From Spirochaetales bacterium (GTDB taxonomy: Bacteria > Spirochaetota > Spirochaetia > JABEVK01), in contig CANJXC010000001.1 of assembly GCA_947478845.1 (NCBI GenBank), positions 248,001 through 312,000 of the forward strand: a stretch of 64,000 bases of DNA. Reading direction: 5' to 3'. Below are positions 57,265 through 64,000 of this stretch, piece after piece. The stretch's first letter is position 1. Each line of letters opens with the position of its first letter. The notes under the pieces are model-generated. The model saw only the letters and a program-made list of their open reading frames with translations, did no database searches and was not told the DNA's origin. The position numbers and the translations under genes were made by a program.

Positions 57265-58674
57265 ATGCGCTCGTTTTTCCTTGGATTGCTTGGCTTATTG
57301 GTGTTTGTTGGTGCTTACCTCGACGCGTCGGAACCGTTGCGTTTTCGACCTCAACCCGAAATCGTGGCTCTCGCTGCGGCCCCGAGTTTTAGCCTCGACA
57401 ACCAGCTCGATGTGGCACTTCTTTTTTCGGGGGTTGCTCCTGCCGATACCCTTTCGTGGCACAACCGATTCTCGTCGTGGATGTCTGATCTGGCCTCACG
57501 ACTGCCACCGGGACTTTCCGATGAAAAGAAAGGTGAGTTTGTGCTCGAATACCTCCATAAGCACCATCTCGCCCGGTATCAGACTTTTCAGACCAGGCTC
57601 GATACGATGATCCTCAACGGGAGCTTCAACTGCGTATCTTCGGCAGTCGCCTACCTTCTGCTCGGTCGAAGCGTCGGCCTCGAGGTTCAAGCCGTAGCCA
57701 CGAGTTCACACGCCTTTTGTCTGGTAAAGCTTCCCGATGGTCGAGAGATGGACGTGGAGACAACATCCGTTTATGGGTTCAACCCCGGAACTAAAACCGA
57801 GTTCAAGGACAGTTTCGGAGCGACAGGTTTGGCTTACGTTCCACCGGGCAAGTATTCAGACCGCAAGAAGATCACCGACCGGGGGTTACTGGGCCTGATT
57901 GTGCAAAACCGAATGGCCGCTTGGCAGGCCCAGGGCAACCTCAATCCCTGCGTCGGTGCTGCGATCGACCGGTGGACCCTCGACCCCTCTCCAGAAAGTC
58001 GGGAGACCCTCGTCGAGGGGTTTGTGAATCTTGCGGCGGAGTACAACACCCACAAAATGTATCTTGCGGGTCTGAGCCTTGCGGAAACGCTTCTCGGGTA
58101 TCTCGGTCCGGTGACCGAAGTGAAAAACCTTGTGAACGCGCTCCTCAACAACCATATCAACACCCTTCTTGACCGCTCCGACTATTCGGGGGCCCTGGCG
58201 TTGGCAGCCCAGTGGAAAAACCGGGAGTGCCTCAAAGAGGAGCAGTTCGCACAGGTTTCCATGGTCATTTTGTCGGCCAGACTGGTCTCAGATGTCAAAA
58301 CGCTCGGCTACCTCGAAGCCGCTAGAAACGTAGAAAACGTGTTTTCCCAGGGTGGAATCACCGCAGCGCGAAGGCAAGAGCTCCTAGGAGTGGTTTATTC
58401 GCAGGAAATCCAAAAGCGAGCCACCAATGGGGGTGCTCTGGCCGGCTGGCAGTTCATCGATACACTTCCGGATGAAATCCGGCGACAATCTTCTGTGGTC
58501 AAGGCTCGCGAAATCTATGTTTACAACTGGACCGTCGATATTCACAACCAGTTTGCAAGCTTATGGAACAAAGGGCAGAAAGACTCTGCCCGCAAGCTCC
58601 TTTCCGAGGCAATTCCCTTGCAACCCGAAAGCTCTGTGCTCAAGAAAGACTTGCTTCTCAGCCAAGGCAAGTGA
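57265..58674 (+). CDS. Exported transglutaminase-like/SirB1-type domain protein with helical C-terminus
   Basis: Protein of 469 residues with a signal peptide (MRSFFLGLLGLLVFVGAYLD). The Cys-His-Asp triad of a transglutaminase-like core is visible: GSFNCVSSAVAYLLLG (Cys near 123), TSSHAFCLV (His near 149) and REMDVETT (Asp near 163). The rest is helical, TPR-like, with a final unit KDSARKLLSEAIPLQPESSV. A periplasmic peptidase or crosslinking-type enzyme is possible. No Shine-Dalgarno is near; a TTAAAC box lies 7 nt upstream. argR starts 63 bp downstream after a separate operator region. Confidence 0.72.
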   Translation: MRSFFLGLLGLLVFVGAYLDASEPLRFRPQPEIVALAAAPSFSLDNQLDVALLFSGVAPADTLSWHNRFSSWMSDLASRLPPGLSDEKKGEFVLEYLHKHHLARYQTFQTRLDTMILNGSFNCVSSAVAYLLLGRSVGLEVQAVATSSHAFCLVKLPDGREMDVETTSVYGFNPGTKTEFKDSFGATGLAYVPPGKYSDRKKITDRGLLGLIVQNRMAAWQAQGNLNPCVGAAIDRWTLDPSPESRETLVEGFVNLAAEYNTHKMYLAGLSLAETLLGYLGPVTEVKNLVNALLNNHINTLLDRSDYSGALALAAQWKNRECLKEEQFAQVSMVILSARLVSDVKTLGYLEAARNVENVFSQGGITAARRQELLGVVYSQEIQKRATNGGALAGWQFIDTLPDEIRRQSSVVKAREIYVYNWTVDIHNQFASLWNKGQKDSARKLLSEAIPLQPESSVLKKDLLLSQGK

Positions 58675-58680
58675 ACTATT

Positions 58681-58710
58681 TTTGCAACTTTATGCAAACT
58701 TATTGCATAA
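58681..58710. promoter_or_regulatory. Overlapping palindromes, probable ArgR operators
   Basis: TTTGCA-N6-TGCAAA (58681-58698) and TTATGCAA-N5-TTGCATAA (58690-58710) are two perfect overlapping inverted repeats just upstream of argR. ARG boxes are AT-rich 18-bp palindromes, usually paired, and argR genes are commonly autoregulated; these fit in position and shape though the half-site (TGCAA) differs from the E. coli TGAAT. They overlap the -35 box of the argR promoter. Confidence 0.7.
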
Positions 58711-58730
58711 CATTGCACTCTCTGTTAATT
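58703..58730 (+). promoter_or_regulatory. argR operon promoter with leaderless spacing
   Basis: TTGCAT (58703-58708), a 16-bp spacer and TTAATT (58725-58730); the GTG start of argR follows after 7 nt. There is no Shine-Dalgarno. The -35 is inside the second palindrome, so ArgR binding would block polymerase. Confidence 0.45.
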
Positions 58731-58737
58731 TGTCCTT

Positions 58738-59202
58738 GTGAAGACGAGAGATGACCGCCTTAAAGCCATTTCCAAGACTATTGTCTCTCATGCTGTTGCC
58801 AGCCAGGAGGAATTGCTCAGACTACTGACTGAACAGGGCCATGAGGTTACACAGGCAACGTTGAGCCGGGACCTCAAGGTTCTCCGCGTGGGTAAGGTCA
58901 GTTCTCCCCACGGGGGGTATATCTATTCCCTTCCAGAGGAATCCAACCGAAACCTCGAGGAATTGGTGCGCGATTTTCAGCGGGGTTATCTGAGCATGGA
59001 AAGTTCGCAGAACTTGGTTGTTCTCAAGACTCTGCCTGGCCATGCGCAGTCGGTCGCCTGGGCACTGGATAATCTGGAACTACCCGCAGTCCTCGGTACT
59101 GTCGCAGGAGACGATACAATTCTGCTCATCCTACGTACGGGCAACACCTTTGACGCCCTGCAACAGAATCTGGCAAAGTTGATGCCAGACTGGGAGGCCT
59201 GA
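58738..59202 (+). CDS. argR: Arginine repressor ArgR
   Basis: Regulator of 154 residues. The N-terminal winged helix has the ArgR signature EVTQATLSRDLKVLRV with the Ser-Arg recognition-helix pair; the C-terminal oligomerisation domain has LGTVAGDDTILLIL, containing the GD[DN]T arginine-binding motif. ArgR hexamers bind ARG boxes when arginine is present. GTG is the only sensible start: a nearby ATG is out of frame. It heads argC-argB-argD-unknown-argG with 1 bp before argC, so it represses its own operon if the upstream palindromes are its operators. Confidence 0.95.
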   Translation: MKTRDDRLKAISKTIVSHAVASQEELLRLLTEQGHEVTQATLSRDLKVLRVGKVSSPHGGYIYSLPEESNRNLEELVRDFQRGYLSMESSQNLVVLKTLPGHAQSVAWALDNLELPAVLGTVAGDDTILLILRTGNTFDALQQNLAKLMPDWEA

Positions 59203-60244: not shown

Positions 60245-61030
60245 ATGAATGTCATCGTGATCAAGATCGGGGGACTGGTGGCCCAGAATTCCGACGTGCT
60301 TGAAAAGCTTCTTTCCGAACTAGCGTCCTCGTCGCAGGGAACGGCAGTGAGCCCCGATTTTGTTCTTGTTCACGGCGGTGGTAAGGAAGTTACAGCCGTG
60401 AGCCAGAGGTTTGGTTTTGAGGCGGAGTTCCGGGAAGGAATCCGCATCACCAGCCCCGGTGAGCTCGAGATTGTGGATATGGTTCTCGGGGGCAAACTGA
60501 ATATCGATCTGGTGCGTCGAGCACAGACCGCAGGCCTGGATGCTGTGGGCCTTGGTGGGCAGGATGGTAGCACGTTCACAGGTGAGGTCCTCAAAGTCGC
60601 CGATAAACCTGACAGCCGCACAGGCAGGGTTACGGCAACGGATCCCAGGCTCCTGAAAACACTGCTGGAGGCGGGTTTTCTTCCAATTCTCAACTCCACC
60701 TCCATGGATGGTAGGGGCCAAGGACTCAACATCAACGCCGACGAAGTGGCTCAAGAGGTGGCGATAGCCCTCCTCGCCCGTAGTCTGATTTACATTTCCG
60801 ATATCCCGGGTGTGCTCAAAAACGACGCTGTAGTTCCCACTCTCGATGAAAAGGCCATCGACGCCGAAATCAGGGCAGGAGTTATTTCTGGCGGAATGAT
60901 CCCCAAGGTGAGGAACGCCATTTACGCTTGCAGCCGTGGCGTGGGGGAAGTGCTTATTGGTGGTTATGGGGCCGAAGGCGATTTGGCCCGGCTTTTGGAT
61001 CATCAAACAGGAACATCCATAACCGAATAG
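60245..61030 (+). CDS. argB: Acetylglutamate kinase
   Basis: Amino-acid kinase of 261 residues, second step of arginine synthesis. KIGGLVAQN, LVHGGGKEVTAV, GLGGQDGSTF and NINADEVAQEVAIAL are the substrate and ATP-binding blocks. It lacks the long N-terminal helix of hexameric, arginine-inhibited forms, so it is likely the short, arginine-insensitive type, which fits control by ArgR at transcription. GGAGAG precedes the ATG. Confidence 0.95.
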   Translation: MNVIVIKIGGLVAQNSDVLEKLLSELASSSQGTAVSPDFVLVHGGGKEVTAVSQRFGFEAEFREGIRITSPGELEIVDMVLGGKLNIDLVRRAQTAGLDAVGLGGQDGSTFTGEVLKVADKPDSRTGRVTATDPRLLKTLLEAGFLPILNSTSMDGRGQGLNINADEVAQEVAIALLARSLIYISDIPGVLKNDAVVPTLDEKAIDAEIRAGVISGGMIPKVRNAIYACSRGVGEVLIGGYGAEGDLARLLDHQTGTSITE

Positions 61031-61048: not shown

Positions 61049-62275
61049 ATGCTGAACATTGACCCGATGGCCCACAAACCCCCTTTTCCTCAAAACTACG
61101 CGCAGGATTTCCTTGTTCTCGACCACGGCAAAGGCACAGTGGTGTGGGACAGGTCGGGCAAACGCTACCTCGACTTTACGGGTGGCATCGCCGTAAGCGC
61201 TCTCGGACACGGGCGCAGGGACCTAGCCAAAATCGCGGGCAAGCAAATGCAGAAACTCACGCATGTGAGCAACCTGTTCACCACCGAACCTGCCCTAAAG
61301 TTGGCTTCCAAACTCGTCAACACCGGCAACCCGGGTCAATTTGCTGCCGTCCACTTCGGTAATTCTGGAACCGAGGCCAACGAAGCCGCTCTCAAATACG
61401 CCCGGGTTTATGCGTTGCGCACCAAGGGCGAGGGCCACCACAAGTTCCTGAGTTTCACAGGTGCTTTTCACGGGCGCACTCTAGGCGCGCTGAGCCTGAC
61501 CCCCACGGAAAAATACCAAAAACCCTACTATCCCCTCCTTCCCGGCTGTGAATCGGTCGCCTACAACGACATCGATGCCCTTTCCCGCCTCGACCGCACC
61601 TACGCAGCTGTGCTCATCGAACCGCTTCAAGGCGAGGGCGGCCTAGACAAGGTAAGCCCAAAGTTTGTAGAGGCCTTGCAAGTCCGTTGCCGGCAACACG
61701 ACATCCTGATCATCGCCGACGAAGTTCAAGCCGGTTATGGACGCACAGGAACTTTTTACTCCTGGCAACAATTAGGCCTCATCCCCGATATTGTGACCCT
61801 CTCAAAGCCAATGGCAGGTGGATTGCCTCTTTCTGCCACCCTGATTCCTGCGCGGGTCAATGAGCAAATCCACATTGGCGACCATGGGACGACCTTTGGT
61901 GGAGGCCCGGTCACTTCGGCCGTAGCGAACCGGGTGTTCGACGTCATCAACGAGCCTAAGTTTCTTGACACAGTAGCTGAGCGCGGAAAGAGCTTTGAAA
62001 GCTTATTGGACGGCCTCAAAAAGGACTTTACGTTTGCCAAGGATGTCAAAGGAATGGGGTTACTTCGTGGTTTGCCACTGGCCTTTAACCCCGAGAAAAC
62101 GACCTTAATGGCCGAAATAATCTCTTCCTGCCAGTACAGAGGCTTGCTGGTCCTTCGCGCCGGCACCAATATCCTTCGTTTCGCCCCTCCCCTCACGGTC
62201 AGCCGGAAAGAGCTCGACCAGGCGGTGGAGATTCTCCGTGAAGTGCTCACCCTGAAGGCCAAGGAGTTTGTTTGA
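61049..62275 (+). CDS. argD: Acetylornithine aminotransferase
   Basis: PLP enzyme of 408 residues, class III aminotransferase. The PLP lysine is in TLSKPMAGGLPLS, the Asp that holds the pyridine nitrogen in IADEVQAGYGRTG, and the phosphate loop in FGNSGTEANEAALKYAR. It makes N-acetylornithine from the semialdehyde produced by ArgC. GGAGG precedes the ATG. Its TGA overlaps a TTG that opens the next gene. Confidence 0.94.
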   Translation: MLNIDPMAHKPPFPQNYAQDFLVLDHGKGTVVWDRSGKRYLDFTGGIAVSALGHGRRDLAKIAGKQMQKLTHVSNLFTTEPALKLASKLVNTGNPGQFAAVHFGNSGTEANEAALKYARVYALRTKGEGHHKFLSFTGAFHGRTLGALSLTPTEKYQKPYYPLLPGCESVAYNDIDALSRLDRTYAAVLIEPLQGEGGLDKVSPKFVEALQVRCRQHDILIIADEVQAGYGRTGTFYSWQQLGLIPDIVTLSKPMAGGLPLSATLIPARVNEQIHIGDHGTTFGGGPVTSAVANRVFDVINEPKFLDTVAERGKSFESLLDGLKKDFTFAKDVKGMGLLRGLPLAFNPEKTTLMAEIISSCQYRGLLVLRAGTNILRFAPPLTVSRKELDQAVEILREVLTLKAKEFV

Positions 62276-62721
62276 AAATCATCCTCGAGTTTGACGACGC
62301 CACCGTAACCCAGCTGCTGAAAACCGTGTTCTTTGGTGCGTGGATGAAGAATGCCACCAAGACCGCCGAGGAACGGGACCCCAATATGGATAGTTTTGTC
62401 CAATACGTGCTCGGAAGGCTCTGGAACTCGGGCGAAAAGACCCGCGTTTGCGTGAACGGTGAAGGGCTCTTCGCTTTTGCACCTGAGTTCGAGGAGGTTC
62501 TTTTTGAGCAGGTGGACGAATACGATCAGGATATTTTTTGGGACGAACTGACCGACCAACTGGCGCGTCGGGATTACTACCAAAAAAATCCCTCAAGAAT
62601 CGGCAAAGTTCCTGAAGGCAAGGCCGCTGAAGATCTGGTGACTGCCATCGAACGGGAGAAAGAAAAGTTTGACAAAGAGTTCGAAGAGCGTGGCGTGGAG
62701 AGGCTGAGAATTGTCCGTTGA
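62272..62721 (+). CDS. Hypothetical protein inside the arginine operon
   Basis: Protein of 149 residues from a TTG coupled to the argD stop (TTGA). It is acidic and soluble, starting MKIILEFDDATVTQLLKTVF, with a Glu/Asp-rich centre (EQVDEYDQDIFWDEL) and a helical Lys/Glu-rich tail. No family is recognised. Its place between argD and argG, with 56 bp to argG, suggests a function tied to arginine synthesis, but none of the missing steps (acetyltransferase argA/argJ, argF, argH) has this size or motif set. Confidence 0.65.
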   Translation: MKIILEFDDATVTQLLKTVFFGAWMKNATKTAEERDPNMDSFVQYVLGRLWNSGEKTRVCVNGEGLFAFAPEFEEVLFEQVDEYDQDIFWDELTDQLARRDYYQKNPSRIGKVPEGKAAEDLVTAIEREKEKFDKEFEERGVERLRIVR

Positions 62722-62777: not shown

Positions 62778-64000
62778 ATGAACAAGAAGACCTACAAGAA
62801 AATCGCGCTGGCCTATTCCGGCGGGCTCGACACGAGCATCATCATCCCCTGGCTGAAAGAGAACTACGGCGGCGCCGAGATCATCGGTGTCTCCGTTGAT
62901 GTGGGACAAAAAGAGGACTGGGAAGCGGTGCAAAAGAAGGGTGAGGCCAGCGGCGCCAGCAAATTGTTCATCGTTGACGCCAAAGAGGAGTTCGCCCAAG
63001 AGTATTTGTTTCCCATGCTTCGAGCGGGGGCCCTGTATGAAGGGAAATACCTTCTAGGAACCGCAATAGCACGTCCGGTGACGGCCAAATACCAGGTGCA
63101 TTACGCCCTGCAGGAAGGCTGCGATGCCGTTGCGCATGGTTGCACCGGCAAGGGCAACGATCAAGTCAGATTCGAGATGACCTACAAGGCCCTGGCCCCC
63201 CATTTGGGCATCATAGCCCCCTGGAGAGAGTGGGACATCACCAGCCGTGAACAAGCCATCGACTACGCCCAAGCCCGGAACATACCGTTGGGCAATATCA
63301 CCAAGCAAAACATTTACAGCCGCGATTGGAACGTGTGGCACATGAGCCACGAAGGCGCCGAGCTCGAGGACCCCCTTCAGCGCCCGCTGGAGCCCATGTT
63401 CCAGCTGACCAAGAGTCCCAAGGACGCCCCCGACGCCGAGACCGAGGTCAGCATCGACTTCGAGAAGGGCGTGCCCGTCGCCGTCAACGGAACGAAGCTG
63501 TCGGGCATCGCGCTCCTCGATCTGCTGAACAAACTCGGGGCCGAGAACGGCATCGGCCGCGCCGACCTCGTGGAAACCCGTACCGTGGGCATGAAGAGCC
63601 GCGGAGTGTACGAAACCCCGGCAGGTACCATTCTCTATACGGCCCTGAGGGAATTGGAGATGCTCTGCCTGGACGGTGAGACCCTCGAAATGAAGAAGAA
63701 TCTCGCCAATACCTACGCCCGCCTGGTGTACACCGGAAAATGGTTCACCGCATTTCGGGTCAATCTGGACGCGTTTTTTACCAGTTCCAGCCGCTACCTT
63801 ACCGGGGAAGTAAACCTCGTACTCTACAAGGGCAACGTGCTGATCTCAGGAAGGCAAAGTAAGTATTCTCTCTACAGCGAGGATTTGGCGAGCTTTGGCA
63901 AGAGCAACTACGACCACCATGACGCGACGGGTTTCCTGAAGCTCTATAGCCTGGCCACAGGCGTCCAGGCCAGCGTGCAGAAGGACTGGAATAAAGCATG
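62778..64000 (+). CDS. argG: Argininosuccinate synthase, complete except for the last base of the stop
   Basis: ATP-dependent enzyme joining citrulline and aspartate. The PP-loop AYSGGLDTSI is at residues 11-20; TAIARPVTAKYQ, HGCTGKGNDQVRFE and the later SRGVYETPAGT are family blocks. The frame runs 407 codons and the window ends in TG directly after the codon for Ala, so a TGA stop is probably completed by the next base; this length is normal for ArgG. AAGGAG lies 8 nt before the ATG. It is the last visible gene of the argR operon; argH may follow. Confidence 0.95.
   Translation, partial: MNKKTYKKIALAYSGGLDTSIIIPWLKENYGGAEIIGVSVDVGQKEDWEAVQKKGEASGASKLFIVDAKEEFAQEYLFPMLRAGALYEGKYLLGTAIARPVTAKYQVHYALQEGCDAVAHGCTGKGNDQVRFEMTYKALAPHLGIIAPWREWDITSREQAIDYAQARNIPLGNITKQNIYSRDWNVWHMSHEGAELEDPLQRPLEPMFQLTKSPKDAPDAETEVSIDFEKGVPVAVNGTKLSGIALLDLLNKLGAENGIGRADLVETRTVGMKSRGVYETPAGTILYTALRELEMLCLDGETLEMKKNLANTYARLVYTGKWFTAFRVNLDAFFTSSSRYLTGEVNLVLYKGNVLISGRQSKYSLYSEDLASFGKSNYDHHDATGFLKLYSLATGVQASVQKDWNKA

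What the first reader, a model, noticed from the sequence alone, without database searches (positions are those of the whole stretch)
58681..58738. Overlapping TGCAA palindromes as spirochaetal ARG boxes
Two perfect inverted repeats overlap each other and the -35 of argR. The half-site TGCAA differs from the usual TGAAT, which would define a lineage-specific ArgR motif controlling the whole argRCBD-x-G operon.
Basis: partly seen in the sequence, partly recalled or inferred. Interest (0 to 1): 0.5.

Follow-up and report, generated by a model that had tools for sequence, protein, structure and literature searches.

The report
Arginine repressor binding site before argR
Just upstream of a spirochaete's arginine-repressor gene lies a well-formed double binding site for that repressor, laid out as in other bacteria, so it is very probably the ordinary feedback switch of the arginine operon and not a new lineage-specific motif.

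Summary
The palindromes are real. Read properly they are two 18-bp ARG boxes (58681-58698 and 58702-58719), 3 bp apart and 21 bp centre to centre: the textbook ArgR operator layout, 18 bp before the GTG of argR, which heads argR-C-B-D-x-G. The tandem motif occurs once in the 2.99-Mb genome without mismatch.

Of 61 argR leaders, 45 carry a box pair at 20-22 bp spacing, against 0.4 in shuffles. argF of this genome and two congeners has a similar pair at 20 bp. argJ, argH and carA have none. Two relatives without argR lack the boxes at argC and argF.

The 'lineage-specific TGCAA motif' fails. The third half-site base is nearly free (T 86, C 49, A 40, G 5 of 180). The recognition helix TQATLSRD is identical in 88 of 88 ArgRs. 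TGCAT is already the published Streptomyces half-site (PMC4865122). C is enriched in this genus (17 of 24 half-sites), perhaps from base composition; a link to glutamate 36 is only a lead.

Verdict: a new member of a known kind.

The parts
58681..58698 (.). ARG box 1, TTTGCAACTTTATGCAAA (core 58683-58696)
   Evidence: 8 of 8 core positions of TGNAW-N4-WTNCA; unique tandem match in the genome
58702..58719 (.). ARG box 2, ATTGCATAACATTGCACT (core 58704-58717)
   Evidence: 8 of 8 core positions; centre 21 bp from box 1, 3-bp gap 58699-58701
58693..58707 (.).
   Evidence: sequence; follows from the two boxes standing side by side
58682..58711 (+). Possible weak promoter TTGCAA-N18-CATAAC under the operator (by eye)
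   Evidence: 8 of 12 consensus positions; not found by the scan, so unproved
58738..59202 (+). argR, arginine repressor, 154 aa, GTG start
   Evidence: TIGR01529 and both Pfam ArgR domains over cut-off; only PF01316 match in the genome
59204..60235 (+). argC
   Evidence: TIGR01850 over cut-off
60245..61030 (+). argB
   Evidence: TIGR00761 over cut-off
61049..62275 (+). argD-type aminotransferase
   Evidence: TIGR00707, 404.9 bits, just under its cut-off of 410.05
62272..62721 (+). unassigned gene x, 149 aa, overlapping argD by 4 nt
   Evidence: no NCBIfam or Pfam match
62779..64000 (+). argG (stop codon ends one base beyond the window)
   Evidence: open frame read; identified as argininosuccinate synthase by eye, not by a family search

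Best explanation
This is the autoregulatory operator of the arginine operon. When arginine is plentiful, an arginine-loaded ArgR hexamer binds both 18-bp boxes on one face of the DNA and keeps RNA polymerase from the argR promoter, lowering transcription of argR-C-B-D-x-G. Shown here: the tandem boxes, their canonical spacing, their conservation before argR across the class, the same kind of site before argF in three congeners, and their absence in two relatives that lack argR. Inferred: ArgR binding, arginine dependence, the promoter position and repression.
For: Unique tandem match in the genome, control 0. 45 of 61 argR leaders have a pair scoring at least 14 of 16 at 20-22 bp, shuffles mean 0.4 and maximum 1. 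argF pair in G000 and G001 and G002; those sites were not in the profile that also finds them. argC away from argR: 7 of 11 argR+ genomes and 0 of 6 argR- genomes have a pair of 14 or more. Published layout: two 18-bp boxes 3 bp apart in E. coli, 2 bp at its argR (PMC3293853; PMC6640053).
Against: No binding data. No recognisable sigma-70 promoter. No boxes at argJ, argH or carA. 16 of 61 leaders lack a pair of 14 or more, and 27 added leaders are weaker (53 of 88 in all). G008 and G009 have argR but no argF pair. The argF pair of this genome is degenerate (profile E 0.3).
Confidence: 0.92

Rival explanations
1. A lineage-specific ArgR code: this lineage's ArgR has been retuned to read TGCAA/TGCAT instead of TGAAT.
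For: All four half-sites here have C as third base; C is 17 of 24 in this genus (argR and argF sites) against 52 of 208 in the other argR leaders. Glu36 is the best of 218 residue tests (p 0.00036).
Against: Third base mixed within the class and within single operators; congeners show TCCA and GCCG at argR; recognition helix identical in 88 of 88; the same TGCA boxes in Gemmatimonadetes leaders and in Streptomyces (PMC4865122); the number of C follows GC content in one set.
Confidence: 0.08
2. A chance palindrome or promoter element without ArgR binding.
For: Short palindromes are common: 5 loose matches in the window against 3.3 expected.
Against: Unique tandem match, conserved position and spacing, recurrence at argF, absence in relatives without argR.
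Confidence: 0.03
3. An operator for a different regulator, or a transcript hairpin acting as an attenuator.
For: The whole element is one long imperfect inverted repeat, and a terminator-like stem lies just upstream at 58649-58672.
Against: The conserved features are those of ARG boxes (spacing, core positions), the site sits before the repressor's own gene, and it is absent where argR is absent. No folding test was run on the transcript.
Confidence: 0.03

Closest known systems
E. coli ArgR operators (tandem 18-bp ARG boxes)
   Same: [quoted passage not shown] PMC6640053)
   Different: E. coli half-site is TGAAT (consensus TNTGAATWWWWATTCANW, PMC4865122) and the E. coli argR boxes are 2 bp apart; here the half-sites are TGCAA/TGCAT and the argR boxes are 3 bp apart
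Streptomyces ARG boxes
   Same: TGCAT half-sites, consensus AWTGCATRWWYATGCAWT (PMC4865122); tandem pairs before arginine genes (PMC3293853)
   Different: Boxes 2 bp apart in S. clavuligerus; unrelated phylum
B. subtilis AhrC operators
   Same: Nearest solved repressor by sequence is AhrC (1f9n, E 8.3e-30); TGNAT-type half-sites
   Different: Consensus CATGAATAAAAATKCAAK; in argC the two boxes are 11 bp apart (PMC3293853)

Membership tests
ArgR/ARG-box operator | Palindromic box of the form TGNAW-N4-WTNCA | tested here: met
   Both boxes 8 of 8
ArgR/ARG-box operator | Two boxes about two helical turns apart (2-3 bp gap) | tested here: met
   Centres 21 bp apart, 3-bp gap
ArgR/ARG-box operator | An ArgR encoded in the same genome | tested here: met
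   One PF01316 match, argR itself
ArgR/ARG-box operator | Located before arginine biosynthesis genes | tested here: met
   argR-C-B-D follow; second site before argF; not before argJ, argH, carA
ArgR/ARG-box operator | Overlaps the promoter | tested here: inconclusive
   No promoter found by the scan; weak candidate by eye
ArgR/ARG-box operator | Arginine-dependent ArgR binding | not testable with these tools
   Needs gel shift or footprint
   Third base T/C/A mixed in the class; TGCA boxes in Gemmatimonadetes loci and Streptomyces (PMC4865122)

The most novel reading that the evidence does not exclude
The third half-site base is set by the residue just before the recognition helix (position 36 of this ArgR). 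Glutamate or aspartate there favours C, asparagine or lysine favours T or A. This would be a one-residue, one-base code explaining the TGAAT, TGTAT and TGCAT flavours of ARG box across bacteria. Perfect-core half-sites: Glu 18 of 33 C, Asp 11 of 27, Asn 1 of 29. M. tuberculosis ArgR also has Glu there and B. subtilis AhrC has Lys (species names recalled for those entries). Against it: the Glu signal disappears when related ArgRs are clustered (4 Glu clusters against 28 others, p 0.98), the added loci alone are not significant (p 0.17), and 0.00036 over 218 tests is about 0.08 after Bonferroni.
Probability: 0.12. Interest if true: 0.45.

Novelty: new member of a known kind. Interest (0 to 1): 0.17.

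Why it matters
It extends the classical ArgR operator, with canonical spacing, to uncultured Spirochaetes, a group for which my paper searches listed no ARG-box report (open-licence PMC papers only). It also shows that the third half-site base is weakly constrained, so a TGCA half-site alone should not be read as a new specificity.

Tried and rejected
Overlapping-palindrome reading: rejected, because the 21-bp tandem register is the one conserved across the class. Genome-wide single boxes: 7 exact TGCAW-N4-WTGCA places against 3 for the reversed control; two are this site and one is before argF. Of the other four, L006 and L008 lie inside ORFs, L010 overlaps predicted ORFs and L009 lies between ORFs of at least 100 aa; none was tied to an arginine gene. 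The exact argF box is the dyad between a 20-bp-spaced pair, not itself one of the aligned boxes. The only other tandem place within 3 mismatches (L003) overlaps ORFs. Degenerate tandem pattern with 2 mismatches: only this site and one place inside an ORF. carA: the best weak pair lies by a tRNA-like stretch (sequence, judged by eye). Residue-to-base coupling at Glu36: suggestive, not established.

Data-quality limits: gene starts were assigned automatically; two argC starts (G026, G020) look misassigned but were kept in the counts; several argF orientations (G002, G004) were wrong and were redone; G002 argF is split over two contigs; no open frame was found for the argJ locus of G008. The profile was trained on argR sites that include this one and those of G001-G003, so its argR hits are circular; the argF hits are not. 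Makarova et al. 2001, on conservation of the ArgR site in all bacterial lineages, is in the reference list of PMC3293853 but is not held; I know only its title.

Full report
What is there. The stretch before argR holds TTTGCAACTTTATGCAAA-CTT-ATTGCATAACATTGCACT at 58681-58719. Each 18-bp unit fits the general ARG-box form TGNAW-N4-WTNCA at 8 of 8 core positions, and the centres are 21 bp apart. Its second, TGCAA-N5-TTGCA at 58693-58707, is the dyad formed between the inner halves of the two boxes and follows from placing two palindromes side by side. The tandem motif has one exact place in the 2.99-Mb genome; the only other place within 3 mismatches has 3 and overlaps ORFs; the reversed control has none.

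Genes. The site ends 18 bp before the GTG of argR (58738). ArgR passes the NCBIfam and both Pfam cut-offs and is the only PF01316 match in the genome. argC, argB and argD follow with gaps of 1, 9 and 18 nt, then an unassigned 149-aa gene overlapping argD by 4 nt, then argG after 57 nt. The three nearest named relatives are Spirochaetes MAGs with ArgR 66-75% identical. The sigma-70 scan found no promoter, so the claimed -35 overlap stays unproved.

Conservation. PF01316 was found in 61 of 78 genomes searched around this one, own genome included. All 61 leaders were scored over -150 to +20. A pair scoring at least 14 of 16 occurs at spacing 21 in 27 loci, at 20 in 16 and at 22 in 9; shuffles average 0.1 to 0.2. 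A smaller excess at spacing 30 (9 loci) fits the 10-bp half-site register. Any of 20-22: 45 of 61, shuffles mean 0.4, maximum 1 of 30 runs. Adding 27 leaders from a phylum-wide draw (38 of 218 genomes with a match) gives 53 of 88 at 14 or more and 70 of 88 at 13 or more. The added leaders score worse, so conservation is not universal.

Other arginine genes. In this genome argF has boxes at -66 and -46 from its ATG, 20 bp apart, score 14; G001 scores 16. G002 has TGCATATTTATGCA and TGAATAAAGTTGCA 20 bp apart before argF, on a contig that breaks inside the gene. argJ, argH and carA show nothing above background. G008 and G009, which have argR, show no argF pair (12 and 11). So the regulon here appears to be two promoters, argR and argF, as far as tested. 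A profile of 24 argR operators, scanned over 13 genomes, ranks this site first in its own genome (E 1.3e-4, circular because the site was in the training set) and finds argF next (E 0.3); in G001 it finds argR and argF (E 0.002 and 0.005).

Coupling to ArgR. G004 and G006, same family, no argR found at 99% and 97% completeness, have no pair at argC or argF above 13. Their best profile hits are E 4.8 and 6.3. Among genomes examined with argC away from argR or without argR, 7 of 11 argR+ and 0 of 6 argR- have a pair of 14 or more. Two of these 17 starts look misassigned and were kept.

Is the half-site special? The third base is T 86, C 49, A 40, G 5 over 180 half-sites of 90 boxes, 0.33 bits; box selection did not use this base. 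Congeners show TCCA and GCCG at argR. The helix TQATLSRD is identical in 88 of 88. Gemmatimonadetes argR leaders also carry TGCA boxes at 21 bp (L172-L174), and PMC4865122 gives AWTGCATRWWYATGCAWT for Streptomycetes (passage seen). There is a genus-level excess of C, 17 of 24 (related sites, so not independent). GC content follows the number of C in one set (rho 0.42, p 0.0015, 55 loci) and less in the larger one (rho 0.22, p 0.067, 70 loci). Glu36 is the best of 218 residue tests (p 0.00036), but support fails after clustering related ArgRs.

Mechanism. From the known biology of ArgR (hexamer, arginine as co-repressor, boxes overlapping the promoter; PMC6640053 and PMC3293853, passages), the site most likely lets arginine-loaded ArgR shut off its own operon. 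Binding, arginine dependence and repression are inferred, not shown.

Literature. Read as passages only: PMC3293853, PMC6640053, PMC4865122; abstract and outline of PMC1784095. Searches for ARG boxes or ArgR in spirochaetes gave nothing relevant in their listings. The library holds open-licence papers only.

Verdict. An ordinary, well-formed ArgR operator in a poorly studied lineage: a new member of a known kind.

Noticed in passing
window 62272-62721: A 149-aa gene between argD and argG, overlapping argD by 4 nt, has no NCBIfam or Pfam match; it may be an uncharacterised partner in the arginine operon.
   Followed up: partly
window 57265-58671: The 469-aa protein encoded just upstream of the operator has no NCBIfam or Pfam match.
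   Followed up: partly
L162 (G009:C19), about 1501-1530: A strong ARG-box-profile hit (E 2.8e-4) lies by the start of a gene that looks like glutamate synthase gltB (by eye); E. coli ArgR also represses gltBDF (PMC1784095, abstract).
   Followed up: partly
L155 (G010:C63) and L166 (G010:C162): ARG-box-profile hits (E 0.0016 and 0.0068) lie near genes that look like a peptide-binding transport protein and a sodium-dependent transporter (by eye).
   Followed up: no
phylum-wide search: ArgR is patchy in the phylum: 38 of 218 genomes drawn have a PF01316 match, mostly in this class.
   Followed up: no
window 58720-58737: The argR leader shows no obvious Shine-Dalgarno sequence before its GTG start (sequence, by eye).
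   Followed up: no
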